In this document: positions 2,726 through 38,729 of the stretch, in pieces | Layout: each line of letters begins with the position of its first letter | Numbering within the stretch: position 1 is the stretch's first letter | Assembly: GCF_003330765.1 (NCBI RefSeq) | Contig: NZ_CP024903.1 | Span: 2,046,001-2,110,000 of the forward strand | From: Burkholderia pyrrocinia | GTDB taxonomy: Bacteria; Pseudomonadota; Gammaproteobacteria; Burkholderiales; Burkholderiaceae | Direction of reading: 5' to 3' | Length of the DNA stretch: 64,000 nt | Program-made: the position numbers and the translations under genes | The notes under the pieces: generated by a model | Told to the model about the DNA's origin: nothing | The model's input: the letters and a program-made list of their open reading frames with translations, nothing else | Databases searched by the model: none

Positions 2726-3192
2726 GTCTATCGATCCGATGTCTGGCCGAACGGTGTGCTGCCGCGCGCCGAAATAGAAATGTCACAGTGTGACAGGAAT
2801 ACCATGCTGCCCGGAACGGGATGGCGAATGTTGCGCTTTCCAGCCACCTTCGGCCCCCCAAAGAAAGCTGGCCGGATGTTCGCCTTTCCCGAACGCGCCG
2901 TTCATTGGGAATGGCTGAGCAGCGCCCCGCCTTTTCTGCGGTCGAAACTGATCGTCTTGCCGATCATTCCTCCGTTCATTGACTTGCATAGGCGTGCAAT
3001 CGCGCCTAGCCGGCCATGACGACCTTGCCGCTCGAGAAGCCGCAACGCACGTCCCTTGCGACGGGCACGCTGATTCCGGCGTTTTAAGCAAAATTTAATT
3101 CTGGCGACCTACGGTGGAATCGTCACGTCATGAAATAGCCGTGTGGGCGGTTATACGCAGTGCGTTCGGTACGGCGCGACGGGAGCGTAGTC
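2726..3192. other. Intergenic region between divergent antiporter and pseudo-HtrA genes
   Basis: No gene is recognised here. A near-perfect palindrome, TGTCACAGTGTGACA at 2781-2795, lies about 56 bases upstream of the antiporter start and could be an operator. The right end carries the PmrA/QseB-like box described separately (3083-3099) and the ribosome-binding region of the pseudo-HtrA gene. Confidence 0.4.
3083..3099 (+). promoter_or_regulatory. PmrA/QseB-like box upstream of pseudo-HtrA copy 1
   Basis: TTTAAG-CAAAA-TTTAAT fits the PmrA-type direct repeat YTTAAK-N5-YTTAAK. It lies about 94 bases before the ATG at 3193. The same arrangement (GTTAAG-CGCGC-CTTAAT), followed in both cases by CCTACG about ten bases later, precedes the second copy of this operon at 17083-17099. 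Conservation in two diverged copies supports a real site. Which regulator binds it is inference. Confidence 0.55.
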
Positions 3193-4173
3193 ATGACAAG
3201 CATCGGGTTCAAGCGTATCGCGCTTACCAGTCTGGCCATTGCAGCCGTGTCCGCGAGTTGCATGGCGAAGGAACCGCTGTCGCCTGCAACGGCAACACGG
3301 GCTCCGCAGGCTGTTCTGTCCGCAAGCCCGGGTTTCACGGCCTACCCGGGAATCGTGTCCGACTTCGAGAACATGGCGCGAATCGACGGCCCCGCCGTCG
3401 TTGCCGTCAAGGTGTCCAGGATCGACGCGACATCGAGTGTGCGGCAACTGTGGCCCCCGCCAGGCAGCGTGAACGCGCCGTTCCTCGGTTTCTTCGAGGA
3501 ATTTTCACCCCCACCCGGCGGCGATCGCGGTGCCTTGGCACAGCGGCCCGCCAGCGGCTTCATTATCTCGTCGGACGGCGACATCCTCACCGATGCCGGC
3601 GACCTTGCCGGCGCGTCGACGATCGCCGTTACGCTCGCCGACGGGAAAACGTACCGCGCTCGGTTGATCGGCAGCGATCCGGCAAGCGGTGTCGCGCTGC
3701 TTCATATTCATGCGAAAGGTCTGCCGGTCGCCCGGATCGGATCACCTGCGATGCTCAAGGCCGGCGAATGGGTCGCCTCGATCGGTTCGCCCTACGGGCT
3801 GGGAACCTCGATCGTCAGAGGCATCGTCAGCAACCCCTCCCGTCTGCTTCCCGATCAATCGTACGTTCCGTTGATCCAGACCGATCTTACGGAGCACTCC
3901 GGGGACGGCGGCAGCCCGCTCCTGAACCTCAAGGGTGAAGTCGTCGGTATCGAAACGCCACCTCCGGACGACGGCAACGTGTATCAGGGTCTCGCCTTTG
4001 CGATACCGATCGACAAGGCCATGAAGGTCGAACGTCAGTTGAAGTTGCACGGCAAGGCCGCGCATGGACGACTCGGAGTCTCGGCGCAGGAGGTGACGGC
4101 TCCGCTTGCCAAGGCGTTCGGGCTGATGCGGCAGAACGGTCCGCGCACGTTCGTCGCCACGGACGCAGGTTGA
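3193..4173 (+). CDS. HtrA/DegP-like pseudoprotease, truncated copy lacking PDZ domains
   Basis: The 326-residue product has an N-terminal export signal (residues 1-25, with Cys23 near the cleavage region) and a trypsin-fold HtrA domain. Fold landmarks are clear: IISSDGDILT (125-134), IGSPYGLG (197-204), LIQTDLTE (228-235), SPLLNLKGE (241-249), FAIPID. All three catalytic positions are changed: His in the ILTN-x-H context is replaced (A-G-D at 135-137), Asp in DPRSD is Gly166, and the Ser of GNSGG is Gly239. It should have no protease activity. It stops at TDAG, exactly where PDZ1 begins in the second copy (17200-18669), apparently through a ~480-base internal deletion. First gene of a three-gene cassette with 4225-4659 and 4756-5382. 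The ATG follows a GGAG-type site. Confidence 0.85.
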   Translation: MTSIGFKRIALTSLAIAAVSASCMAKEPLSPATATRAPQAVLSASPGFTAYPGIVSDFENMARIDGPAVVAVKVSRIDATSSVRQLWPPPGSVNAPFLGFFEEFSPPPGGDRGALAQRPASGFIISSDGDILTDAGDLAGASTIAVTLADGKTYRARLIGSDPASGVALLHIHAKGLPVARIGSPAMLKAGEWVASIGSPYGLGTSIVRGIVSNPSRLLPDQSYVPLIQTDLTEHSGDGGSPLLNLKGEVVGIETPPPDDGNVYQGLAFAIPIDKAMKVERQLKLHGKAAHGRLGVSAQEVTAPLAKAFGLMRQNGPRTFVATDAG

Positions 4174-4224
4174 GCATGTTTCGCTGTCGGCAGCTCGGCA
4201 TCGTGCACATTCAAGGAGTCAGTC

Positions 4225-4659
4225 ATGAAGTACTCGTCCAGAACAGCGCTCGGCGTCGTCGTCGTGACGATTGCCGTGTTCGCCCAAGACGCGTTTTCCG
4301 CCGAGCAGGCGTCACTGCCGCAGCCCGAACACGCTGGCAACGTAACCTATCTATCCGGCGGCATCGGTAGTGATCAATCGACTGCAATCAAACAGCAGAT
4401 GGGCAAGTATCCGCTCGTGCTCGAGTTTGCGGGGCATACGAGCGGCGGGAACGACTATTTGGCCGATGTCCCGGTCAAGATCGTCGATGCACATGGCAAG
4501 ACCGTGCTCTCGATGCTAACCACCGGGCCATTCCTGCTCGTCTCAACGCCCGACGGGCGCTATACCGTGACGGCCACCTATAACGGGCAGGCCATGCGGC
4601 GAAGCGTCGAGGTACGCGAGTCGTCGCATGCCCACTCGGTGTTCGTCTGGACAATGTAG
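4225..4659 (+). CDS. Secreted carboxypeptidase-regulatory-like domain protein, copy 1
   Basis: The 144-residue product has a signal peptide ending near DAFSA, then a compact beta-rich domain of the carboxypeptidase regulatory-like (transthyretin-like) type: YLSGGIGSDQ, DYLADVPVKIVDAHGKTVL, GPFLLVSTPDGRYTVTATYNG. No catalytic motif is seen, so it is probably a periplasmic binding or scaffolding module. A strong AAGGAG site precedes the ATG. It sits between the pseudo-HtrA and Rieske genes in one operon. The paralogue at 18721-19155 is very similar, and a more distant one stands alone at 37285-37761. Confidence 0.85.
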   Translation: MKYSSRTALGVVVVTIAVFAQDAFSAEQASLPQPEHAGNVTYLSGGIGSDQSTAIKQQMGKYPLVLEFAGHTSGGNDYLADVPVKIVDAHGKTVLSMLTTGPFLLVSTPDGRYTVTATYNGQAMRRSVEVRESSHAHSVFVWTM

Positions 4660-4755
4660 CTCGACCTCCGGGAGCCGGCCCATCTGCTCGACCATGGGTT
4701 CGGGCGTGGCAGCGGCCCGGAAAGCATGAAAGACGGCCACATCGAAGGAGTCGAC

Positions 4756-5382
4756 ATGGACGAGAAACCGACCGAGCCGGCGGGGCCCGACGTCAAGCGT
4801 CGCCGTTGGCTGATCGCGACTTCCGTCGCGAGCGGCATCGGCGGCATCGCGGCCGCCATCCCTTTCGTTGATTCCCTGACACCACCCGCCAATGCGCTCG
4901 CCGCTGGCGCACCGGTCAAGGTCGACATCGGTCGCTTGTCCGAAGGCGCAATGTTGACCGTTGCATGGCGCGGGAAGCCGGTGTTCATCGTCGACCGCTC
5001 GCCGACCATGCTTGAAACCGTCATCAAGGCGACCCCGCTCGTCGCTGATCCGGACTCGCGTCACGCCTTCTCAATGCCATTGCCGGTCTATTGCCAAAAC
5101 ACCTTTCGCTCGCGTGCCGACCATCGGAACATTCTGGTCGTGGTTGGCGTCTGTACGCACCTCGGTTGTACGCCAACACCTCGGTTTCAACCAGGGGCTC
5201 AGCCAAACCTGCCCGATAATTGGCCAGGCGGCTTCCTGTGCCCCTGTCATGGCTCGACCTACGATCTTGCCGGACGGGTATTCCGCGACAAGCCGGCACC
5301 GCAGAACCTCGATGTGCCGCGTTACATGTTCCTGTCGCCGAGCGAACTGCTTATCGGTCAAGACGAACATGGGGCGGCATAG
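4756..5382 (+). CDS. Orphan bc1-type Rieske iron-sulfur protein, copy 1
   Basis: A 208-residue Rieske protein resembling PetA of the bc1 complex. A twin-arginine-type membrane anchor (KRRRWLIATS, residues 14-23, then a hydrophobic helix to about 38) precedes the Rieske fold. Cluster motifs are intact: CTHLGC (133-138) and CPCHGS (162-167), giving Cys133, His135, Cys162 and His165 as ligands and Cys138-Cys164 as the disulfide. Ser167 and Tyr169 favour a high potential. No cytochrome b or c1 gene is nearby, so its partner is unknown. The start at 4756 was chosen for the AAGGAG site six bases upstream and because it matches the start of copy 2 (19255). Last gene of the cassette. Confidence 0.9.
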   Translation: MDEKPTEPAGPDVKRRRWLIATSVASGIGGIAAAIPFVDSLTPPANALAAGAPVKVDIGRLSEGAMLTVAWRGKPVFIVDRSPTMLETVIKATPLVADPDSRHAFSMPLPVYCQNTFRSRADHRNILVVVGVCTHLGCTPTPRFQPGAQPNLPDNWPGGFLCPCHGSTYDLAGRVFRDKPAPQNLDVPRYMFLSPSELLIGQDEHGAA

Positions 5383-9255: not shown

Positions 9256-9293
9256 TCATGATGTGACATTTCTCCTACGCTACATGATGTGAT
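9256..9293. promoter_or_regulatory. Two putative MarR-type operator copies upstream of the MFS gene
   Basis: TCATGATGTGAC (9256-9267) and ACATGATGTGAT (9282-9293) are direct repeats 26 bases apart. The first differs by one base from TCATCATGTGAC (14512-14523) in front of the marR gene at 14472. This suggests the same regulator binds both promoters. Binding itself is inference. Confidence 0.4.
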
Positions 9294-9477
9294 CCCTGCC
9301 ACTAGCTGTCCATCCACGCAAATCTTTCGGATCACCCTGCAATCAGGTTACAAAATCCCGTCGCACACAAAAAAGAACAGCGAAGGTCACTGCGCTTTCC
9401 GGCAGCTGCGCTGTCGCCTGTTCCAAGGATCCGCGACGCATTCAGTTCGGTTGAGCACATCCTTCGGGAGACCAGTA

Positions 9478-9981
9478 ATGAAAGGCTTGATGCGATATGC
9501 GGTGGTGTTGGTGCTCGTACTGTTCGGCGGGTGCCACTCCGCAACCAAGACGTCCGGCACCACCGGCATGATGAATCAGAGCGCTGCAAATGGTCAGGCG
9601 ATCGGCACGCCTTCGACCATGGCTGACGAGCTGAACAACCCCAACAGTCCGCTCGCGAAACGCAGCATCTATTTCGATTTCGACAGCTATGAAGTAAAAC
9701 CTGAATACCAGTCGCAACTGCAGGCGCACGCCGACTATCTGCGCCTTCATCCAAGCCGGCACGTTCGGATTCAGGGGAACACCGACGAACGTGGCACAAG
9801 CGAGTACAACCTCGCATTGGGTGAACGCCGGTCGCAGGCCGTGCTTCGCACGCTGGAAACGCTCGGCGTACCGGACTCACAGATCGAGGCGGTTAGTTTC
9901 GGCAAGGAGAAGCCAGTTGCACTGGGCCATGACGAAGCGTCGTGGGCCCAGAATCGTCGCGCGGACATCGTGTATCGATGA
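9478..9981 (+). CDS. Pal/OmpA-family peptidoglycan-associated lipoprotein
   Basis: The 167-residue product has a lipoprotein signal with lipobox FGGC near residue 19 and a C-terminal OmpA-like domain. Key motifs are IYFDFDSYEVKPEY, HVRIQGNTDERGTSEYN and LGERRSQAV, where Asp and Arg residues bind the diaminopimelate of peptidoglycan. It is therefore an outer-membrane lipoprotein anchoring to the wall, a paralogue of Pal (the Tol-Pal genes are absent here). Start 9478 is chosen for the signal peptide and a GGGAG site eight bases upstream. It is a lone gene, divergent from the MFS gene. Confidence 0.88.
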   Translation: MKGLMRYAVVLVLVLFGGCHSATKTSGTTGMMNQSAANGQAIGTPSTMADELNNPNSPLAKRSIYFDFDSYEVKPEYQSQLQAHADYLRLHPSRHVRIQGNTDERGTSEYNLALGERRSQAVLRTLETLGVPDSQIEAVSFGKEKPVALGHDEASWAQNRRADIVYR

Positions 9982-16918: not shown

Positions 16919-17082
16919 CTTCCTTTTTCCTATTTTTCTGATGGTAAGCCCGGAAAGCACCGGCTTGGCGCCCGGACAGCAACCATTTGATCTAGATCGA
17001 TCATTTATTGGGGACAGTCAGAAACGCCGTGCGAGTCTAGATTATCCTCACCAGCAAATTGCATGGATATAAAGGTCACTAC

Positions 17083-17099: not shown

Positions 17100-17199
17100 C
17101 TTCCCCACCTACGCTTGAATTGTCGCGTAGTGAAGCGGTCATCCTGCAAGTTGCGCACGTGACGTGCAATGTTCGGGATCGCGCGGCGGGAGTAGCGTC

Positions 17200-18669
17200 A
17201 TGGCAAACATTGTGTTCAAGCGGTTCGCGCTCGCTAATTTGGTCACCGCAGCACTATCCGCGGGTTGTATGGCACAAACGCCGCATACGTCTTTGGCGAC
17301 GAACGCGGCTGTTCCGAGCGCCCCCACTGCAACCTCATTCACAGGTCCCTATCCTGGGATCGTCAGCGACTTCGAGAACATGGCACGGACCCAGGGTCCT
17401 GCCGTGGTCTCGATCAGTATTTCAAGCAGCAGTGGCACGTCCGACTTGAAACAGCTGTGGCCACCGCGCGGCCCCGAGGACAACCCATTCCTCCGATATT
17501 TTCAGCAGTTCCCGCCGAGCCATACGGATGTCGAAGGTAAGTTGGCTGCGCAGCATGCAAGCGGTTTCATCATTACAGCGGACGGCGATATCCTCACGAA
17601 TGCAAGCAACATTGTTGCTCACGCATCGAAAATATCGGTCACCCTAGCGGACGGTCGGACGTACCGGGCCAAGGTGATCGGCAGCGATCCGGCAAGCGGC
17701 GTAGCTCTGCTGAAAATTCCCGAAAATGGGCTGCCGGTCGCCAAGATCGGATCTGCGTCCACTGTCAAAGCTGGCGAATGGGTCGCGTCGATTGGTTCTC
17801 CCTATGGACTTGGAAACTCGATCGAGCGAGGTATTGTGAGCAACACCTCCCGCCTGCTTCCCGATCAATCGTATGTTCCGTTGATCCAGACGGATCTTAC
17901 GGAAAATGCCGGCGACGCCGGCAGTCCGCTCCTGAACCTCAAGGGCGAAGTCATCGGTATCGAAACACCACCGCCGGACAACGGTAATACCTACCAAGGC
18001 CTCGCATTCGCGATACCGATCGACGAGGCGATGAAGGTCGAACGGCAGTTGAAACTGCATGGCAAGGCTGAACATGGACGTATGGGAATCTCGGTCCAAG
18101 AGGTGACGGGCCCGCTTGCCCTTTCGTTCGGGTTGCCGAAACCGAACGGCGCGCTCGTCACGTCGGTCGACGCAGGTAGCCCCGCTGCAAAAGCAGGCCT
18201 GCGAGCAGGTGACATCATTGTCGGCGTGAATGGCGCGGCAGTGCCGGACTCGATTCGATTACCCGTGACGGTTGCCGACATGCGCCCCGGCACAGCGATC
18301 GAATTGTCCTATTGGCGCGCTCATGCAATGCACCATACCGCGCTCACCCTGGCGGCCGTGAATACCAATGACGCTTCCGTCGTTGCGAGAAGCCAGGGAT
18401 CGGCCGACACGTACGGTCTGACCGTGCGCAATCTAACGCGCGACGAGCGTCGCACGACAGGCATTCAGGGAGGCGTCCGCGTCGAGCAAAGCAGCGGATC
18501 GGCAGCGTTCGCCGGAATCGAGCCGGGTGACATCATCTTGAAGGTCGATAACACCTCGGTATCGAGCACTGCCCAATTTCTCGAGCAAATCGCGCATGCC
18601 AAGCAGGCCGTGGCGCTTCTCGTTGAACGCCACGGCACACGAATGTTCGTGACCATGGAAGCGAGTTGA
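17200..18669 (+). CDS. HtrA/DegP-like pseudoprotease with two PDZ domains, full-length copy
   Basis: The 489-residue product has an export signal (1-25, Cys23), a linker, an HtrA trypsin-like domain at about 55-290, PDZ1 at about 293-380 and PDZ2 at about 395-489. Fold motifs are well kept (IITADGDILTN, IGSPYGLGNS, LIQTDLTEN, SPLLNLKGE, GLAFAIPID), and carboxylate-loop PDZ motifs AAKAGLRAGDIIV and FAGIEPGDIIL are intact. The catalytic triad is gone: His is Asn137, Asp is Gly167, Ser is Ala240. It is therefore most likely a periplasmic chaperone, adaptor or peptide sensor rather than a protease. It heads the second cassette with 18721-19155 and 19255-19887. The first copy lacks both PDZ domains. 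Confidence 0.9.
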   Translation: MANIVFKRFALANLVTAALSAGCMAQTPHTSLATNAAVPSAPTATSFTGPYPGIVSDFENMARTQGPAVVSISISSSSGTSDLKQLWPPRGPEDNPFLRYFQQFPPSHTDVEGKLAAQHASGFIITADGDILTNASNIVAHASKISVTLADGRTYRAKVIGSDPASGVALLKIPENGLPVAKIGSASTVKAGEWVASIGSPYGLGNSIERGIVSNTSRLLPDQSYVPLIQTDLTENAGDAGSPLLNLKGEVIGIETPPPDNGNTYQGLAFAIPIDEAMKVERQLKLHGKAEHGRMGISVQEVTGPLALSFGLPKPNGALVTSVDAGSPAAKAGLRAGDIIVGVNGAAVPDSIRLPVTVADMRPGTAIELSYWRAHAMHHTALTLAAVNTNDASVVARSQGSADTYGLTVRNLTRDERRTTGIQGGVRVEQSSGSAAFAGIEPGDIILKVDNTSVSSTAQFLEQIAHAKQAVALLVERHGTRMFVTMEAS

Positions 18670-18720
18670 ACTCGACTCGATACAAGTGCTTCTTCATGGA
18701 GCATATTTGCGGAGGTAGCG

Positions 18721-19155
18721 ATGAAATACCGATCCAACTTAGCGTTTCACGTAGCAGTAATCGTACTTGTCGCTGCGACCGGGAGCGTGCTGGCCGCTGA
18801 GCCGGCTTCATTGCCACCGCCCGAACACGCGGGCAAGATCGCCTATCTGTCGGGCGGGATCGGCAGCGATCAATCGACTGCAATCAAGCAGGAGATGGGT
18901 AAGTATTCGCTGGTCCTGGAGTTCGCCGGCCGCACGCGAGGTGGCAACGACTACCTGGCAGACATTCCTGTCCAGATCACCGACGCACATGCCAAGACAG
19001 TCCTCTCGACGGTGACCACGGGACCATTCCTGCTCGTGTCGCTGCCGGACGGGCACTATTCCGTAACGGCAACGTACAACGATCAGATAAAGCGGCGAAG
19101 CTTCGACGTGCACGCGCCCTCGCATCTCCACGCCGTGTTCGTCTGGACGATGTAG
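18721..19155 (+). CDS. Secreted carboxypeptidase-regulatory-like domain protein, copy 2
   Basis: The 144-residue product matches copy 1 (4225-4659) along its whole length: signal peptide ending near SVLAAE, then YLSGGIGSDQSTAIKQ, DYLADIPVQITDAHAKTVL, TTGPFLLVSLPDGHYSVTATYN, ending VFVWTM in both. It is a single small beta-sandwich domain exported to the periplasm, with no catalytic residues. GGAGG precedes the ATG. It lies 51 bases after the pseudo-HtrA stop and 99 bases before the Rieske gene. Strong conservation between copies, while the upstream protease core has drifted more, suggests this protein carries a specific interaction. Confidence 0.86.
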   Translation: MKYRSNLAFHVAVIVLVAATGSVLAAEPASLPPPEHAGKIAYLSGGIGSDQSTAIKQEMGKYSLVLEFAGRTRGGNDYLADIPVQITDAHAKTVLSTVTTGPFLLVSLPDGHYSVTATYNDQIKRRSFDVHAPSHLHAVFVWTM

Positions 19156-19164
19156 GTCAATATT

Positions 19165-19200
19165 GGAGAAGCCTAAACGGACTGTCATTCAGGCTTCTCC
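19165..19200 (+). other. Intercistronic hairpin between small secreted protein and Rieske genes
   Basis: GGAGAAGCCT (19165-19174) is a perfect inverted repeat of AGGCTTCTCC (19191-19200) with a 16-base loop and no U-run. It lies inside the operon and may act in mRNA processing or differential stability. The corresponding gap in copy 1 has no equivalent. Confidence 0.45.
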
Positions 19201-19254
19201 GCGAGCGCACTTGGACTTGAAGGCTTAAAGCATTCCGGTCTAGAAGGAGCTACG

Positions 19255-19887
19255 ATGGATGAACAAGCGGTTGAATCCGTCGTTGTGAACGTTAATCGAC
19301 GGCGATGGCTCATTGCGACGTCCGTCGTGGGCGGCCTTGGCGGCGTCGCGACAGCTATCCCTTTCATGGACTCGTTGTCGCCGCCCGACAGCGCACTGGC
19401 CGCGGGCGCGCCGGTCAAAGTCGATATCAGTCAATTGTCCGCAGGCGCGATGTTGACGGTTGCGTGGCGTGGCAAGCCGGTGTTCATCGTCAATCGAACT
19501 GATGCGATGCTTGATGGCGTCATCAAAGCGACCTCGATGGTGGCTGATCCCGACTCATCTCATCCGTTTTCAATACCGTTGCCGGACTATTGCAAGAATG
19601 CCTTCCGCTCGCGGACCGATCACCGGAACATACTCGTCGTGGTCGGCGTCTGCACGCACCTCGGTTGCACTCCGATTCCGCGCTTCCAGTCGGGACCCCA
19701 GCCGAACCTTCCCGACGACTGGCCTGGCGGCTTCCTGTGCCCATGCCACGGATCGACGTACGATCTCGCGGGGCGGGTCTTCCGCGACAAGCCCGCGCCG
19801 CAGAATCTCGACGTCCCGCGCTATATGTTTTTGTCGCCGATCGAGTTGCTGATCGGACAGGATGAACGTGGTGAGGCGCAACCTTGA
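19255..19887 (+). CDS. Orphan bc1-type Rieske iron-sulfur protein, copy 2
   Basis: The 210-residue product matches copy 1. It has a twin-arginine-type anchor (NRRRWLIATS, 14-23) and a hydrophobic helix, then the Rieske fold with CTHLGC (133-138) and CPCHGS near 162-167; all ligands and the disulfide Cys are present, as are the Ser and Tyr that raise the potential. No cytochrome b or c1 genes lie nearby. GAAGGAG sits just upstream of the ATG. Keeping two intact copies argues for a working electron-transfer role, possibly with a periplasmic partner delivered by the cassette, but the partner is unknown. Confidence 0.9.
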   Translation: MDEQAVESVVVNVNRRRWLIATSVVGGLGGVATAIPFMDSLSPPDSALAAGAPVKVDISQLSAGAMLTVAWRGKPVFIVNRTDAMLDGVIKATSMVADPDSSHPFSIPLPDYCKNAFRSRTDHRNILVVVGVCTHLGCTPIPRFQSGPQPNLPDDWPGGFLCPCHGSTYDLAGRVFRDKPAPQNLDVPRYMFLSPIELLIGQDERGEAQP

Positions 19888-29785: not shown

Positions 29786-32077
29786 TCACGCATCTGTTCC
29801 CACTGCGTGGAACAGCTCCTCCTCTTGAGCGCAATGCAGGCGTACGATTGCTTCCAGGCCGTACAGCAAACGTTGTATCGCCTGCACCTGCATGGTGTCC
29901 GGTTCGTCATGCGGCATGTCCGTGACCATCTGCCTGAGTGATCGGACCATCTTGAAGATCTCCCGGTGTGCGCTGCTCATCGCTGCAAGCGGGTCCTCGC
30001 CACCGAGCAGCGGGGCAAGGCGCGCGTAGACGTCGAGATCGTCGGCTCGTTCGTGCGGCAGCAGCCGCTCTTCCAGCGAGTCGATGACCTGAGCAAGCTC
30101 GTTGGTCATGGTTACCCCGGATAGCTTCGGTATGCGATCCGCGAGGTCCCTGATCTGGTCCAGCAGTGGCGACAATGCCGTGTGCTCGCGCTTGAGTTGC
30201 TCGACATCGACATCGGTCAGCCGAGCGTCCGTCAACCTCTGGCGAACCAGCAACACGCGTAACGCATTGACGATGACGACGACGTCGATGACCTCCTGAA
30301 TCACCGCACCGGCAATCGGCTGCAGGAATCCCGCCGCCGCAATCGTCATTGCGGCAACCGACAACGACATGCCGGTCACCACGCTCTCGAGCGCAATCCG
30401 GCGCGAGCGTCGTGCGATACGCATCGCGTCCACGAGTCGATCCAGCCGATCCACCAGCAGTATCACGTCGGCCGCTTCGGAAGACGCGGCCGCCCCTCGC
30501 GCCCCCATCGCGATACCGACATCGGCCGCCGCCAGCGCTGGCGCATCGTTCACACCGTCGCCGACCATGATCGTCACGCCCTCCTTGCGAGCTGCCTGAA
30601 TTGCGGCAAGCTTGTCCGTTGGCGCTTGCTCGGCGCGCACATCGGTGACACCCAACAGCTCGCCAACGGCTTGAGCAATGTCCCGCCGGTCACCAGTCAA
30701 CATGATGAGGCGCTCGACGCCTTCACGTTTCAGCAGCCGCAATGCCCTCGGCGTTTCCAGCCGTACCTGGTCGGCCATTTGAATCGCGCCGATCATGGCG
30801 CCATCCACACCGACGAATACAGCGGCCCCGCCTTGGCTGCCGACCCGCCTTAGAACGGCGTCGCTCCAAGGCGCAATCGTCGAGCGGGCAGAGACGTATC
30901 CGAACTTGCCGATCGCGACAGACCTGTTATCGACCCAGCCGGTGACGCCTTCGCCGGCCGTTTCAATGACGGCCGACGGCGGAGACAGACTGATGCGACG
31001 TTCCCGCGCGGCGACCGTCAGCGCATCCGAAATGACATGACCCGAAGCTTGAGCCAATGAGGCCGCGAAACGCAGCACATCGTCCGTTCCGACACCCGCA
31101 CCACATTCGATCGCAACGATACGTGCCCGCCCTGCCGTCAGCGTCCCCGTCTTATCGAAGAAGAGAATCGTTGCTTGTGCAAGACGTTCCAGTGCGCCTC
31201 CGCCTTTGACTAGGACACCGCGTTTCGAACAACGCGACATACCGGAAACAATTGCGACCGGTACGGCGAGAATCAACGGACAAGGCGTGGCCACGACGAG
31301 TACGGCAAGCGCACGTGCGACCTCGCCGGTCAGCAACCAGGAGATGCCCGCGACGAGCAACGAAACGAGCACAAAGAATGCGGCGTAGCGATCCGCGAGA
31401 CGTACGGACGGACTGCGCTCGCGTTGCGCACGCTCGACCATGCGGACGATGCCCGCAAGCGTGCTGTCGCCGACGGTCGTACGGGCGACCATTTCGAACG
31501 GAGCACCGGCGTTGACCACGCCGCTGCATGCGCTTTCCCCGGAGCGTCGCCGCTGAGTGGATGACTCGCCTGTCAGCATGGATTCGTCCAGTTCCGCGTC
31601 GTCGGTCAACGTACCGTCGACCGGCACGAATTCGCCGCTTCGTACGAGCAGTCGGTCACCGGGGAGGACGGTTTCCAGCGCGATAGAACGCCATTCACCG
31701 TTCTCGAACCGGGTTGTCTGCCGAGGGGCACGGCTGAGCAGCGCGGTCATCTCGCATTGCGCGCGGTTTTGCGCATACTGCTCCAGCGTCCGCCCGCTTG
31801 CCAACATTAACGCAATCACCGCGGCAGTAAGCGTCTCATCGAGCGCTATCGCCAGCCCGATCGCCAGCCATGCGAGCACATCGATGCCGGCCTGCCGCCT
31901 CGCCACGGCCTTTGCAAGGGAAACCGTCAACGCGAGCAAGACCGGCAACGTACCAAGCAGCCATACGACTCGCGCGAGCGATGGCAGACCGACCGCAACG
32001 CACATGCCTCCTCCGGCAAGCGTAACGGCCGCCAGGACCAGCAACACGAGATCGATCGACCAGGGTATTCGAGACAT
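29786..32077 (-). CDS. P1B-type metal ATPase with C-terminal hemerythrin domain (P1B-5-like)
   Basis: The 763-residue inner-membrane pump has actuator loop LTGES (168-172), TM metal motif TPCP (264-267), phosphorylation site DKTGTLT (Asp308), and hinge GDGVNDAPA. The N-terminal metal-binding domain is absent. After the last membrane helices a helical region carries hemerythrin-like ligands: KREHTALS, LLPHERADD, SAHREIF and HCAQEEELFHAV. TPCP plus a hemerythrin tail is the architecture of P1B-5 ATPases, for which Fe/Ni export has been reported (Nia type). Start 32077 was preferred because it places the first helix near the N-terminus. Controlled by the FNR-box region at 32177-32243. Confidence 0.88.
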   Translation of the reverse strand: MSRIPWSIDLVLLVLAAVTLAGGGMCVAVGLPSLARVVWLLGTLPVLLALTVSLAKAVARRQAGIDVLAWLAIGLAIALDETLTAAVIALMLASGRTLEQYAQNRAQCEMTALLSRAPRQTTRFENGEWRSIALETVLPGDRLLVRSGEFVPVDGTLTDDAELDESMLTGESSTQRRRSGESACSGVVNAGAPFEMVARTTVGDSTLAGIVRMVERAQRERSPSVRLADRYAAFFVLVSLLVAGISWLLTGEVARALAVLVVATPCPLILAVPVAIVSGMSRCSKRGVLVKGGGALERLAQATILFFDKTGTLTAGRARIVAIECGAGVGTDDVLRFAASLAQASGHVISDALTVAARERRISLSPPSAVIETAGEGVTGWVDNRSVAIGKFGYVSARSTIAPWSDAVLRRVGSQGGAAVFVGVDGAMIGAIQMADQVRLETPRALRLLKREGVERLIMLTGDRRDIAQAVGELLGVTDVRAEQAPTDKLAAIQAARKEGVTIMVGDGVNDAPALAAADVGIAMGARGAAASSEAADVILLVDRLDRLVDAMRIARRSRRIALESVVTGMSLSVAAMTIAAAGFLQPIAGAVIQEVIDVVVIVNALRVLLVRQRLTDARLTDVDVEQLKREHTALSPLLDQIRDLADRIPKLSGVTMTNELAQVIDSLEERLLPHERADDLDVYARLAPLLGGEDPLAAMSSAHREIFKMVRSLRQMVTDMPHDEPDTMQVQAIQRLLYGLEAIVRLHCAQEEELFHAVGTDA

Positions 32078-32176
32078 GACGATATTTCCGATCGCCGTGC
32101 ATGGACGTGTTCGCTGCGTCCGATTCCGGTTGCAGACGGCGTGGCACCAGTCTAGGAAACGCCGCGGTTCGACCGT

Positions 32177-32190
32177 TGACATGGGTCAGG
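32177..32190 (-). promoter_or_regulatory. Near-consensus FNR/ANR box (P-type ATPase side)
   Basis: TTGAC-ATGG-GTCAG has one mismatch in the second half-site and lies 100 bases upstream of the ATPase start. A perfect box (32230-32243) serves the other side of the same divergent region. Confidence 0.5.
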
Positions 32191-34776: not shown

Positions 34777-37155
34777 TCAGTACAGCAGAAACGCCGGGCG
34801 CTCGTGCGCGAACGCAGCATCTTGCGCATCGACGACACGTTCGATATCGTCAAGCGACCGCCCCGCTTCCAGCATGTCGGCCACCTCGCGCGAGCCGACC
34901 GATGCACGTATCGCATCGATCCGGAACTGCGCCGGATAACGCCGGTGCAGCGCCAGTGCGAGCGCCAGCCCGATCTCGCCCGGCCGCACCGCGCCGGGCG
35001 GCCGTTCGATGCGCACCCCTTCGCACAACCTGCCGCGATACGGCCCCTCCGCTGGCACGAAGCGAACCGGCGAGAATGTCGCGTCCAGCTGCATCGCGCG
35101 AAGATCGACCGCGAGGATGCGCCCGTCGATCCACGGCGCGCCCACCACGCCGAACGGTGTCTCGGTGCCGCGCCCGACACTGACCGCCGCTCCCTCGATG
35201 AGCCCCGTCTCCGGGTACAGCGACAACGCGGCGCCATCGCGCAGGTTCGGCGATGGCGGCACCCGGCCGAGCCCGGTATCGCCGAAGCGCATCGCACGCA
35301 CGTAATTCGCCATCGGCACCACGGTCAGCGCCGCGCCGATATGCAGGCGGTCGTTGAACAGCCGCGCCAGTTCGCCGAGCGTCATGCCGGGCTGGAGCGG
35401 CAACGGGTAATAGCCGGTGAACGTGGCCGGCCCGGCATCGGCCACTGGGCCGCCGAACGTATCGCCGCCCAGCGGGTCCGGGCGGTCGAGCACGAGCACC
35501 GGGCGATGCGCGGCGGCGCCGGCCTCGAGCGCGTAACCAAGTGTGGCCAGGTACGTGAAGAAGCGTAAGCCTGCGTCCTGCAGGTCGATCACCAGCACGT
35601 CGACGTCGGCGAGCAGCGCGGGCGCGATCCTGCGGCGATCGCCGTAGAGACTGTGAATGACCACACCGGTCGCGGCGTCGATCGTGTCGGCGAACGTCTC
35701 GTCGACGTCGGTACCGAGCCCATGCTCGGGCGCGAACAGTGCGACGAGCCGCGCGCCGGGCGCCTGCGCGAGCAAGTCGACCGTTCGCCGGCCGAACCGG
35801 TCGAACCCGCTGCGGTTCGTGACGAGCGCAATGCGCTTGCCGGCCACGGCCGCGAAGCCGCTTGCCGCCAGCACGTCGATGCCGGCCAGCACCGGCCCGC
35901 GCGACACCGGCAACCGGCCGGCCTGCGCGATGGCCGCCGCCATCGCGGGCACGCGCGTCGCAATCTGTGACGGCGTCACGGGCGCGGCCTCGCTCGATAC
36001 GATGCCGAGCACGAGCGAGCGCAATGGCATCGCCGTGCCGGCTTCGTCGGGATACAGCCGGCTCGTCAGCACGACCGCAAAGCGGCGCGTCACGGGATCG
36101 ATCCACAGCGTCGTGCCCGTATAGCCGAAGTGTTGCAGCGCGCCGACCGGCGGCAACCGGTAGCGGTTCGCGACGAGCGGCGGCCCGACCGCCCAGCCTG
36201 GCGTGTGCAGGTCGCCTTCCGCATCGAGCGTGGCAGGCGTCTCGAGCGCGGCGACGCCGCGGCGCGCCAGCACGCGCACCGCGCCGAGCGCGCCGCCGTT
36301 CAGCAGCATGCGCGCGAAGCGCGCCAGATCGTCCGCACTCGCGAACAGGCCTGCGTTGCCGGCAACGCCGCCCATCGCGGCCGCGACGGGATCGTGGACG
36401 CTCCCCCGGAGCAGACGGCCATCGCGAACGGTAGTGGGCGCCACGCGCGCGAACAGCGGCGGCGGTGGCCGGAACGCGGTGCTCGCCATCCCGAGCGGCG
36501 CGAACACATGTGCGGCGCACCACGCGTCGAGCGGCCGGTGCGACACGCGCTCGACGATCTCGCCAAGCACCACGTAGTTGACGTCGCTGTAGCGCACCTG
36601 TGTGCCGGCCGGCGCGCCGGGTGTCATCGCGACGATGTCGGCCAGCACGGCGGCACGGCTGCGCAGCGCCCGGGACGACGACACACCGGCCGGCAGCCCC
36701 GACACATGCGCGAGCAACTGGCGGATCGTGATGCCGGCCTTGCCGTGCGCACCGAACGCGGGCCAGTAGCGCGCGGCCGGCGCGTCGAGGCTCAGCATGC
36801 CGCGCTCCGCGAGCTGCATGATTGCGACCGCCGTCGCCACCGGCTTGGTCAGCGACGCGAGATCGAAGATGGTATCGGCCGTCATCGCCTCGACATGTTC
36901 ACCCGTCACGCGCAGGCCGCGCGCGACGCGCACCCGCACGCCGTCCGCATCGCCCGTCACGACTACCGCGCCGGCAAGATGGCCGTCGGCGATCTCGGCG
37001 GCGATCGCCTCGTCGATCACGGCGGCCTGATGCTGCGCCACGGCCGTGTCGGGCTCCGCGTGCGCACCGGCTGACGCAAGCGCGAACAGCAGCGTGCCGG
37101 TCAGCGCGGTAGCGCAGCGGGATCGTAGCGATCGAGCGCGTTCCACTGTATCCAT
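34777..37155 (-). CDS. Serine beta-lactamase-like hydrolase fused to NamZ-type (DUF1343) muramidase domain
   Basis: The 792-residue exported protein. Residues 1-33 are a signal peptide; about 40-385 form a class C beta-lactamase/esterase fold with SLTK (101-104) and YSD (189-191) plus a HFGYTG segment; about 400-792 match DUF1343, the family of exo-N-acetylmuramidase NamZ: ALVTNRSGFDRFGRRTVDLL, LFAPEHGLGTDVDETFADT, VLVIDLQDAGLRFFTYLATL, VLDRPDPLGG, RGTETPFGVVGAPWIDG. It probably acts on peptidoglycan fragments in the periplasm, coupling a peptidase/esterase-like domain to MurNAc release. The start region overlaps another reading frame (37101-37244). Confidence 0.88.
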   Translation of the reverse strand: MDTVERARSLRSRCATALTGTLLFALASAGAHAEPDTAVAQHQAAVIDEAIAAEIADGHLAGAVVVTGDADGVRVRVARGLRVTGEHVEAMTADTIFDLASLTKPVATAVAIMQLAERGMLSLDAPAARYWPAFGAHGKAGITIRQLLAHVSGLPAGVSSSRALRSRAAVLADIVAMTPGAPAGTQVRYSDVNYVVLGEIVERVSHRPLDAWCAAHVFAPLGMASTAFRPPPPLFARVAPTTVRDGRLLRGSVHDPVAAAMGGVAGNAGLFASADDLARFARMLLNGGALGAVRVLARRGVAALETPATLDAEGDLHTPGWAVGPPLVANRYRLPPVGALQHFGYTGTTLWIDPVTRRFAVVLTSRLYPDEAGTAMPLRSLVLGIVSSEAAPVTPSQIATRVPAMAAAIAQAGRLPVSRGPVLAGIDVLAASGFAAVAGKRIALVTNRSGFDRFGRRTVDLLAQAPGARLVALFAPEHGLGTDVDETFADTIDAATGVVIHSLYGDRRRIAPALLADVDVLVIDLQDAGLRFFTYLATLGYALEAGAAAHRPVLVLDRPDPLGGDTFGGPVADAGPATFTGYYPLPLQPGMTLGELARLFNDRLHIGAALTVVPMANYVRAMRFGDTGLGRVPPSPNLRDGAALSLYPETGLIEGAAVSVGRGTETPFGVVGAPWIDGRILAVDLRAMQLDATFSPVRFVPAEGPYRGRLCEGVRIERPPGAVRPGEIGLALALALHRRYPAQFRIDAIRASVGSREVADMLEAGRSLDDIERVVDAQDAAFAHERPAFLLY

Positions 37156-37284: not shown

Positions 37285-37761
37285 CTAGCGGACCGGATGC
37301 TGCTGCGATCCGGAACACTCGGCACACAGACGCATTGCGCCGTGCCGTTCAGGGTCGTGCCAGTAAAAGCGCACATCGACGGCCCCCCGTGCCGGTACGA
37401 CGACGTGCCGAACTTCCTGAACGGCCCTGTCGTGCGCGGACACGGTATATCGCCCCGGCGGCACGCGGGCGAACAGGAACGGGCCGCTCGTGTGCGCGTC
37501 GAGAATCGTCGACTTTCCGGACGACAGCGTGACATCGACATCGGAAAGATAATGGCCCCTCTTCGATGCGAACGTGATCCGCAGGTTGTATCGCGGGGCG
37601 ACATCGCGAAACGCGGTGACCTCGTCCTGACCGATTCCGCCGGTGATATACGCGACACCGTTCCGCTCGATCGGCTCGGGCGACGTTTCAGCCAGCGCGC
37701 TCGCACCGACGTTCAGCAAGCAGGTTGCCAGCAGCAGCATCTTCACGGTTCCGGTCCACAT
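37285..37761 (-). CDS. Secreted carboxypeptidase-regulatory-like domain protein, distant third member
   Basis: The 158-residue exported protein: signal peptide to about 25, then AYITGGIGQDEVTAFRD, GHYLSDVDVTLSSGKSTILD, TSGPFLFARVPPGRYTVSAHD. This is the same fold and motif order as the cassette proteins at 4225-4659 and 18721-19155 (YLSGGIGSD, DYLADVPV, GPFLLV, GRYTVTA). It has a C-terminal extension with CAEC. AGGAGAG precedes ATG 37761. It stands alone, without the pseudo-HtrA or Rieske partners, and has a perfect FNR/ANR box 130 bases upstream. Confidence 0.8.
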   Translation of the reverse strand: MWTGTVKMLLLATCLLNVGASALAETSPEPIERNGVAYITGGIGQDEVTAFRDVAPRYNLRITFASKRGHYLSDVDVTLSSGKSTILDAHTSGPFLFARVPPGRYTVSAHDRAVQEVRHVVVPARGAVDVRFYWHDPERHGAMRLCAECSGSQQHPVR

Positions 37762-37890
37762 CTTCACTCTCCTGATTGAGCACGCATGGCTGCGATGCCG
37801 CCCGTCCGATCGTGGAACGTGTCGCGTGCGGTGACGTCGCGCATTCGCGTCGACGACGATGTCAGCGTCGCGCGGAACGTCGATTTCCCG

Positions 37891-37904
37891 TTGACTCAAG
37901 TCAA
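37891..37904 (-). promoter_or_regulatory. FNR/ANR box upstream of the third regulatory-like protein
   Basis: TTGAC-TCAA-GTCAA is a perfect dyad. It lies in the 470-base region 37762-38231 between a minus-strand gene and the plus-strand LRAT-like gene; no gene is recognised in the rest of that region. It is 130 bases from the former start and 328 from the latter. Confidence 0.7.
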
Positions 37905-38231
37905 GTGCGCGCCTGTCGAAGCCGAACGAAGCCGGACGGGCCCCGGCGAAACAGTCATCGCGCCCCATCTGCCCGAGCGGCACGGCAAGCCTGAAAACAC
38001 GGGGGAAACAGCATCCGGCCGGCGCAATCGTTCGTGACGGCTGTCAGCGGATATTGCACGGCCCGTCGGAAATTTCCGACACGGTGGCCCGACGTCGGAC
38101 AGCAAGCTCAGGCCACGCTGATTGTCCCGCGCGGCCCCACTACCAATACTGGAGACGTGACAGGATACAACGTGTTTCGCGGCCGGTACGCGGTTCTTCC
38201 GCCCCGCTGCCGCAGGACCGAGGAGCTGGCG

Positions 38232-38729
38232 ATGATTGATCCGACCGCAGCGCACGCCGACGACGCCATGCTGGATGGCGAACCGCCGATCGGTGCCCAC
38301 CTCGTGACCCGCCGCCCCGGCTATGCGCATCACGGGATCTACATTGGCGACGGCAACGTAATTCACTACGCTGGATGGTCACGCCACGCGAGCGGCGGTC
38401 CGGTCGAGGTCGTCACCCTGGACGGCTTCCGTGCCGGTTTCGGGCTCGCGGTCATCCGACACGCGCGCACGCTGTACGTTGGAACGGAAGCCGCGCGCCG
38501 CGCGGCATCGCGTCTTGGCGAATGCCAATACCGGCTGCTCACGAACAACTGCGAGCACTTCTGCCTGTGGTGCCTGTTCGGTGTCGGGCGGAGCGAGCAG
38601 GTCGCGTCGTGTCTGCGCAACCCGGTACACGGCATTGCGGTCGCCGTCATGCTGATGGCGTGCGTTCTGGCCGCGCGATTGCATCCGGCGACGACCGGGC
38701 GCGACTGCCTGGCACGGTATATGGCCTAG
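38232..38729 (+). CDS. LRAT-domain (NlpC/P60-like) protein with C-terminal membrane anchor
   Basis: The 165-residue protein has the LRAT fold: GAHLVTRRPGYAHHGIYIGD with His34, VIHYAG with His45, and NNCEHFCLWCLFG with the nucleophile Cys107. These three match the Cys-His-His set of lecithin:retinol acyltransferase-like thiol hydrolases/acyltransferases. A hydrophobic helix follows (about 133-150). Start 38232 has AGGAG six bases upstream. Bacterial members are poorly characterised; lipid acyl transfer or amide hydrolysis is likely but unproven. Confidence 0.82.
   Translation: MIDPTAAHADDAMLDGEPPIGAHLVTRRPGYAHHGIYIGDGNVIHYAGWSRHASGGPVEVVTLDGFRAGFGLAVIRHARTLYVGTEAARRAASRLGECQYRLLTNNCEHFCLWCLFGVGRSEQVASCLRNPVHGIAVAVMLMACVLAARLHPATTGRDCLARYMA

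What the first reader, a model, noticed from the sequence alone, without database searches (positions are those of the whole stretch)
3193..5382. Duplicated cassette: catalytically dead HtrA + small secreted protein + orphan bc1-type Rieske
Seen: the same three-gene order occurs at 3193-5382 and 17200-19887. In both HtrA-like proteins all three catalytic positions are replaced (copy 2: Asn137, Gly167, Ala240; copy 1: no His at 135-137, Gly166, Gly239) while fold motifs are kept. Both small proteins and both Rieske proteins look intact, with full cluster ligands. Known: HtrA proteases need His-Asp-Ser, and Rieske proteins of this type normally sit with cytochrome b and c1. Inference: a periplasmic redox system in which the dead HtrA acts as chaperone, sensor or adaptor and the Rieske protein has a new partner. 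I do not know a described system of this composition.
Basis: partly seen in the sequence, partly recalled or inferred. Interest (0 to 1): 0.82.

Follow-up and report, generated by a model that had tools for sequence, protein, structure and literature searches.

The report
Pseudo-protease and spare Rieske gene cassette
A three-gene set, carried twice in this Burkholderia stress region and also on plasmids and in related bacteria, joins a protease-like protein that has lost its cutting site, a small secreted partner and a spare copy of a respiratory iron-sulfur subunit, probably to keep respiration going under stress.

Summary
The cassette (HtrA-like, small secreted, Rieske gene; one strand, short gaps) lies at 3193-5382 and 17200-19887. 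All three catalytic positions of both HtrA proteins are replaced; copy 1 also lacks both PDZ domains. It recurs: 8 full copies in 7 of 65 genomes of the genus, on three Burkholderia plasmids, and in a second genus. The 17 HtrA rows of this kind form one side of the tree (100/100); catalysis was lost at least twice while long forms stayed under purifying selection. HtrA plus small protein is an older pair: DegP and a small-protein paralogue lie together in 63 of 65 genomes. The orphan Rieske proteins part from PetA in the tree, yet keep the bc1 ligand and docking motifs, and the genome has one cytochrome b. Most likely reading: an alternative Rieske subunit that enters the housekeeping bc1 complex under stress, helped by a non-proteolytic chaperone and its partner. 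A new redox partner is not excluded, but no redox neighbour is constant. A Cys at the signal-peptide end (17 of 17 rows) may be a lipid anchor, but is not specific. Orphan Rieske subunits and HtrA pseudoproteases are each known; eight literature searches showed no description of the combination.

The parts
3193..4173 (+). copy 1 pseudo-HtrA, short form (protease domain only, no PDZ); ORF opens at 3160
   Evidence: Trypsin_2 only; triad lost; ends before PDZ1
3259..3261 (+). codon of the Cys at the end of the signal peptide (possible lipid anchor)
   Evidence: same alignment column in 17 of 17 clade rows, but also in two intact HtrA rows; anchor inferred
4225..4659 (+). copy 1 small secreted protein, 144 aa
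   Evidence: CarboxypepD_reg match below cut-off; 68% identical to copy 2
4756..5382 (+). copy 1 orphan bc1-type Rieske; ORF opens at 4726
   Evidence: TIGR01416 184.6 bits; ligand motifs
16987..17000 (+). FNR/Anr-like box (one mismatch) upstream of copy 2, between it and the divergent GGDEF gene
   Evidence: no such box with at most one mismatch upstream of the other 16 clade HtrA rows
17200..18669 (+). copy 2 pseudo-HtrA, long form (protease domain and two PDZ); ORF opens at 17164
17266..17268 (+). codon of the Cys at the end of the signal peptide (possible lipid anchor)
   Evidence: anchor inferred
18721..19155 (+). copy 2 small secreted protein, predicted all-beta
19255..19887 (+). copy 2 orphan bc1-type Rieske
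   Evidence: TIGR01416 187.1 bits; ligand motifs
9289..9981 (+). OmpA/Pal-type lipoprotein gene; such a gene lies within 8 kb of the orphan Rieske in 10 of 27 loci
   Evidence: PF00691

Best explanation
The cassette encodes a stress-time variant of the respiratory bc1 Rieske subunit together with its own periplasmic helpers. Shown: the Rieske belongs to a group apart from PetA with bc1 ligand, anchor and docking motifs; the genome has a single PF00033 cytochrome b; the HtrA has lost its triad and its long form is kept by selection; HtrA plus small protein resembles an older DegP plus small protein pair. Inferred: the Rieske is exported by Tat, anchors in the inner membrane and replaces PetA in the housekeeping bc1 complex under low oxygen or envelope stress. 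The pseudo-HtrA, possibly tethered by a lipidated Cys, acts without cutting, as a holding chaperone or as a regulator of active DegP. The small beta-sandwich protein is its partner, inherited from DegP. Together they would protect or place the variant Rieske or other envelope proteins.
For: Adjacency: of the 14 orphan Rieske genes in 65 genomes of the genus (one short fragment dropped), 8 have HtrA and small protein just upstream, 1 has the small protein only, 5 have neither. Over 27 fetched orphan loci (partly chosen by such hits, with near-copies, some cut by contig ends) HtrA lies within 8 kb in 16 and the small protein in 20, in every case upstream and on the same strand. Plasmid cassettes. 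One PF00033 cytochrome b. Orphan/PetA split 99/94. Motifs kept. HtrA clade 100/100, at least one triad residue lost in all 17 rows. dN/dS: long HtrA 0.12-0.31 in 19 of 28 pairs with finite dS; orphan Rieske 0.07-0.26 in 15 pairs. DegP plus small protein pair in 63 of 65 genomes. Precedents: spare Rieske genes outside the bc1 cluster with functional redundancy in Rubrivivax gelatinosus and Rhodospirillum rubrum, as cited in PMC6256036 (abstract and passages seen); MamO (PMC4794232, abstract and one section seen).
Against: No expression, complex or exchange data. 5 of 14 orphan Rieske genes in the genus lack both helpers, so these are not strictly needed. Some loci have other redox genes nearby (b561/b562, c-type cytochromes, Mo-hydroxylase), which could be partners. 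The FNR-like box is at copy 2 only. Short HtrA shows weaker constraint (0.28-0.54), and the copy 1 small protein against its close relatives gives 0.40-1.00, on few changes. Dead HtrA also occurs with no orphan Rieske found in the stretch fetched (L060; L062 at a contig end). The signal-peptide Cys is also in that column in two intact HtrA proteins of the own genome, and the residue at -3 is Ser in Burkholderia, off the lipobox rule as I recall it.
Confidence: 0.5

Rival explanations
1. The Rieske has a new redox partner in the periplasm or inner membrane (cytochrome b561/b562, a c-type cytochrome, a Mo-hydroxylase with multihaem cytochrome c, or a cupredoxin), with the dead HtrA as scaffold: the first reader's view.
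For: Cytochromes b561 and b562 lie 3-5 kb upstream in L038, L057 and L058 and 12-14 kb upstream of own copy 1 and of L059 (Pfam). Multihaem cytochrome c in 5, a c4-like cytochrome in 1 (own copy 2) and Mo-hydroxylase in 3 of 27 loci within 8 kb.
Against: None of these is near most of the 27 loci, while HtrA and small protein recur; bc1 motifs are kept.
Confidence: 0.2
2. Three separate stress genes that travel together as cargo: a spare Rieske, a paralogue of the DegP pair, and no functional link between them.
For: Plasmid and island setting. 5 of 14 orphan Rieske genes in the genus stand without the pair, and small proteins occur with neither HtrA nor Rieske in the stretch (L050-L054).
Against: Order, strand and short gaps are kept in the window genus and in genus g20, and on plasmids. 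Each HtrA found beside an orphan Rieske has lost at least one triad residue, while the five HtrA plus small protein pairs without a Rieske whose triads were checked (own DegP, L066-L068, L080) keep all three.
Confidence: 0.22
3. Decaying genes: the HtrA copies are on the way to loss and the rest follows.
For: Copy 1 lacks both PDZ domains; short forms show dN/dS 0.28-0.54 and the copy 1 small protein 0.40-1.00 against close relatives; HtrA is interrupted in L069 and a remnant in L044.
Against: Open frames over long distances and low dN/dS in long forms and Rieske. In 6 of 7 short rows, from several genomes and a plasmid, the protein ends at the same place; the seventh (L059) has a different, longer tail.
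Confidence: 0.08

Closest known systems
Redundant second Rieske proteins (Rubrivivax gelatinosus, Rhodospirillum rubrum; Ouchane et al. 2005 and Schneider and Schmidt 2005 as cited in PMC6256036, passages seen)
   Same: bc1-type Rieske encoded outside the bc1 gene cluster
   Different: No pseudo-HtrA or small protein is mentioned in the passages seen; exchange not tested here
MamO and other magnetosome HtrA pseudoproteases (PMC4794232, abstract and section 11 seen)
   Same: HtrA-type fold with a degenerate triad, in a special gene set, with repeated independent loss
   Different: Not MamO by the curated model (31.8 and 38.4 bits, cut-off 800); metal binding not tested
DegP/MucD with a downstream small protein (this genome C1:2995124 and C1:2994582)
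   Same: Same two-gene order; likely ancestor or sister of the first two genes; the small paralogue passes CarboxypepD_reg (37.1 bits, cut-off 32.3)
   Different: Triad intact, no Rieske gene beside it (the genome's three Rieske genes lie elsewhere), Tyr in place of the signal-peptide Cys
Orphan cbb3 subunit CcoN4 of Pseudomonas aeruginosa (PMC5697931, abstract and outline seen)
   Same: Lone subunit of a respiratory complex encoded apart from the full operons; a section heading speaks of CcoN4-containing isoforms in biofilms
   Different: Other complex; no pseudoprotease mentioned in what I saw
lxa locus (PMC6127331, passages seen) and tLST (PMC8290217, passages seen)
   Same: Low-oxygen or stress islands: BON, PfkB and Usp genes named for lxa, with FtsH BCAM0309 (PMC3759415) inside its gene range; DegP for tLST. 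The window holds FtsH, BON, PfkB and Usp genes
   Different: The word Rieske does not occur in the held main texts of either paper; tLST DegP is described there as having conserved signature residues

Membership tests
bc1 Rieske (TIGR01416) | Score over the curated cut-off | tested here: met
   184.6 and 187.1 bits against 97.4
bc1 Rieske (TIGR01416) | Two cluster motifs, with the Ser and Tyr of high-potential forms (Ser/Tyr rule as stated in PMC6256036) | tested here: met
   CTHLGC and CPCHGSTY in both
bc1 Rieske (TIGR01416) | Tat-type N-terminal anchor | tested here: met
   PF10399 26.1 and 25 bits, cut-off 24; RRRWLI motif
bc1 Rieske (TIGR01416) | Encoded with cytochrome b and c1 | tested here: not met
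   No petB match in the 27 stretches; the one PF00033 cytochrome b is at C1:416162
bc1 Rieske (TIGR01416) | Assembles into the bc1 complex | not testable with these tools
   needs biochemistry
HtrA/DegP protease | Trypsin-like domain | tested here: met
   PF13365 84 and 92.5 bits, cut-off 27.6
HtrA/DegP protease | His-Asp-Ser triad | tested here: not met
   all three positions replaced in both copies
HtrA/DegP protease | PDZ domain | tested here: inconclusive
   met in copy 2, absent in copy 1
HtrA/DegP protease | TIGR02037 Do family cut-off of 416.2 bits | tested here: not met
   203.5 and 350.9 bits
MamO-type metal-binding pseudoprotease | Degenerate triad | tested here: met
MamO-type metal-binding pseudoprotease | MamO curated model | tested here: not met
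   31.8 and 38.4 bits, cut-off 800
MamO-type metal-binding pseudoprotease | Surface di-His metal site | not tested
   model of copy 2 failed
Bacterial lipoprotein (pseudo-HtrA) | Lipobox with Cys at the end of the signal peptide | tested here: inconclusive
   Cys in 17 of 17 clade rows; -3 is Ser in most, Leu in L060; two intact HtrA rows (L007, L008) also have Cys in that column; lipobox rule recalled

The most novel reading that the evidence does not exclude
A lipid-tethered HtrA pseudoprotease with a transthyretin-like partner is a dedicated periplasmic assembly and protection factor for an alternative Rieske subunit, so that accessory islands and plasmids can re-equip the host's complex III for stress. 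(Odds lowered from 0.25 to 0.22, because the Cys that suggests the tether is not specific to this clade.)
Probability: 0.22. Interest if true: 0.85.

Novelty: new variant of a known kind. Interest (0 to 1): 0.6.

Why it matters
Here a clade of HtrA proteins has lost catalysis, apparently more than once, mostly beside one respiratory subunit gene. If the link holds, it gives a testable case of a pseudoprotease as an assembly or protection factor of complex III, and shows that stress islands and plasmids can carry replacement parts for a core respiratory complex.

Tried and rejected
FNR control of all cassettes: rejected; of 17 clade HtrA rows only copy 2 has a box with at most one mismatch in the 400 bases upstream. 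A constant local redox partner: rejected; none is near most of 27 loci. A substitute triad: nothing conserved in the motif stretches, but the copy 2 model had mean pLDDT 30.6 and was not used. Solved structures for the small protein by sequence: none at E up to 10. Its fold search gave weak matches, best E 2.6e-4 with TM about 0.4. Promoter and terminator scans gave no more than shuffles. Rooting of the Rieske tree: the one outgroup row has a branch of 3.76 and settles nothing, so the orphan group may be paraphyletic. Cassettes beyond the family: the order search (86 of 399 genomes with a match) showed nothing over 45% identity outside the family; neighbours of those hits were not checked and no Rieske search was made there. 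Signal-peptide Cys as a mark of the clade: weakened, since two other intact HtrA proteins of the own genome have it too. One 38-residue Rieske fragment (G006:C68) was dropped from the orphan count.

Full report
Setting. The window is G000:C2:2046001-2110000 of an 8.0 Mb genome in 3 contigs. Three genomes that the tool puts in the same genus have contigs of the same length and match as named records: Burkholderia ambifaria RZ2MS16 (G003), B. aenigmatica LMG 13014 (G001) and B. pseudomultivorans LMG 26883 (G029), so the window is from a Burkholderia. At the left edge lies an ATP synthase gamma gene, 93% identical to that of an ATP synthase operon on plasmid pBPJTT; cytochromes b562 and b561 lie further upstream (Pfam for b561). 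To the right are FtsH, BON, PfkB and acetate kinase and three Usp genes, a content like that of the lxa (low-oxygen-activated) locus of B. cenocepacia (PMC6127331 and PMC3759415, passages seen). FNR/Anr-like boxes are enriched in the window: 10 with at most one mismatch, against a mean of 0.82 in 100 shuffles.

Anatomy. Both cassettes have the order HtrA, small protein, Rieske on the + strand, with 51 bp between the first two genes and 66 or 99 bp before the Rieske ORF. Copy 2 HtrA has a trypsin-like domain and two PDZ stretches; copy 1 stops before PDZ1. All three catalytic positions are replaced in both. The small protein has only a sub-threshold CarboxypepD_reg match, but its paralogue beside DegP passes that model. 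A model of it (mean pLDDT 74.6 in the best of five, the others 49 or less; residues 1-34 poor; alignment of 5) is all-beta apart from one short helix and weakly resembles transthyretin, CnaB and CueP chains. The Rieske proteins pass the bc1 model.

Ancestry. The own genome has a DegP with intact triad at C1:2995124 followed by a paralogue of the small protein at C1:2994582. By coordinates, such a pair apart from the cassettes lies within 1 kb in 63 of 65 genomes of the genus (missing G040 and G057). So the first two cassette genes look like a duplicated DegP pair. The Rieske is a paralogue of PetA, 69% identical to that of the own genome over residues 10-208.

Spread. Of 65 genomes of the genus, 7 hold 8 full cassettes (G000 twice, G001, G023, G029, G057, G058, G064); G047 has small protein plus Rieske. 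Of 14 orphan Rieske genes, 8 have both helpers, 1 has one, 5 have none. Full cassettes also lie on plasmids of B. cenocepacia (pBCEN1232, typed conjugative), B. contaminans (pB1701) and B. pyrrocinia (pBPJTT), the last two typed non-mobilizable; L038 (G023) and pBCEN1232 are near-copies. In the family sample (398 genomes) I fetched selected loci only. In genus g20 (unnamed; probably Paraburkholderia, since its HtrA rows group with a named Paraburkholderia plasmid, L060), L061 has all three genes, L064 all three with a Pal gene between, L065 all three with a gap, L069 all three with an interrupted HtrA, L063 HtrA and Rieske; L076, L099 and L101 (g20) and L100 (g25) have small protein and Rieske. 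L066-L068 and L080 (g11), HtrA plus small protein with no Rieske match in the stretch, have intact triads. Two dead HtrA genes (L060, L062) have no Rieske in the stretch fetched; L062 is at a contig end.

Evolution. In a tree of 24 HtrA rows the 17 dead ones (16 different) are one side of a branch, 100/100; the rows were chosen by likeness to the window protein. L064 and L060 have lost only the His; L063 keeps a His but has lost Asp and Ser; the other 14 have lost all three. This needs at least two losses of catalysis, unless residues returned. dN/dS (Nei-Gojobori): long forms 0.12-0.31 in the 19 of 28 pairs with finite dS, many of these saturated; the less diverged pairs L061/L062 and L037/L038 give 0.18 and 0.26. 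Active DegP pairs, as control, give 0.04-0.39. Short forms give 0.28-0.54 in 15 pairs, orphan Rieske 0.07-0.26 in 15 pairs, PetA 0.10-0.23 in 6 pairs. The small proteins give 0.18-0.30 between distant rows, but the copy 1 protein against its five close relatives 0.40-1.00 on few changes. So the long pseudo-HtrA and the Rieske are kept by selection; the short-form cassette is less clear. Six of seven short HtrA rows end at the same place; L059 has a different tail. 27 orphan Rieske and 17 PetA rows part at one branch, 99/94, or 98/95 with an outgroup row; the root is unresolved, and row L049 is long.

A possible lipid anchor. All 17 dead HtrA rows have a Cys in one alignment column at the end of the signal peptide, where the DegP rows paired with a small protein have Tyr. 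Against this: two other intact HtrA proteins of the own genome (L007, L008) also have a Cys in that column, in a loosely aligned part. I infer lipidation as possible, not shown; the -3 residue is Ser in most rows (lipobox rule recalled).

Mechanism. The own genome has one PF00033 cytochrome b, next to petA. The Rieske keeps the parts that in bc1 hold the cluster and meet cytochrome b (role recalled): CTHLGC, CPCHGSTY and a PAP turn are in all 27 orphan rows, apart from one substitution in L069 and changes of the residue before PAP in four rows. Local redox genes vary: within 8 kb, b561 in 3, multihaem cytochrome c in 5, c4-like cytochrome in 1 and Mo-hydroxylase in 3 of 27 loci; by comparison ClC channels in 11 and Pal in 10. 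A Rieske whose partner is a core complex fits this better than one with a local partner. Spare Rieske genes with functional redundancy are known in Rubrivivax gelatinosus and Rhodospirillum rubrum (as cited in PMC6256036), and in Mesorhizobium loti a second Rieske is expressed only at low oxygen, though there with its own cytochrome b and without a phenotype in the nodulation test. The pseudo-HtrA may hold unfolded protein or tune active DegP; MamO is a precedent for an inactive HtrA-type protein that activates an active one (PMC4794232, abstract and one section). These roles are inference.

Novelty. Eight searches of the paper library gave no listing that describes this gene set; of the papers I opened I saw passages, abstracts, outlines or single sections only. 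Each part has a known kin; the combination and the clade-wide loss of catalysis are new to me.

Noticed in passing
window 29786-32182 (-): P-type ATPase (E1-E2 ATPase and HAD hydrolase domains) with a C-terminal hemerythrin domain in one protein, which looks an unusual fusion.
   Followed up: no
window 34777-37155 (-): Beta-lactamase-type (PF00144) domain fused to a NamZ exo-muramidase.
   Followed up: no
window 16170-61858: Ten FNR/Anr-like boxes (at most one mismatch) against 0.82 expected by chance; the region resembles the lxa locus in gene content.
   Followed up: partly
window 37285-37983 (-): A further, divergent paralogue of the small protein (38% identity).
   Followed up: no
G000:C3:369078-369424 (L020): A small-protein paralogue split over two frames, near genes that look like Hsp20 by eye.
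   Followed up: no
L043, L047, L048, L050-L052, L054: Orphan Rieske or small protein near a Mo-hydroxylase gene and a multihaem cytochrome c gene; in L043 and L050-L052 also ECF sigma factor, cupredoxin and DUF4142 genes (clusters, Pfam of one member of each).
   Followed up: partly
window 38034-38729 (+): LRAT-domain protein (PF04970).
   Followed up: no
L069:6250-10400: Cassette HtrA interrupted by an insertion in a g20 genome.
   Followed up: no
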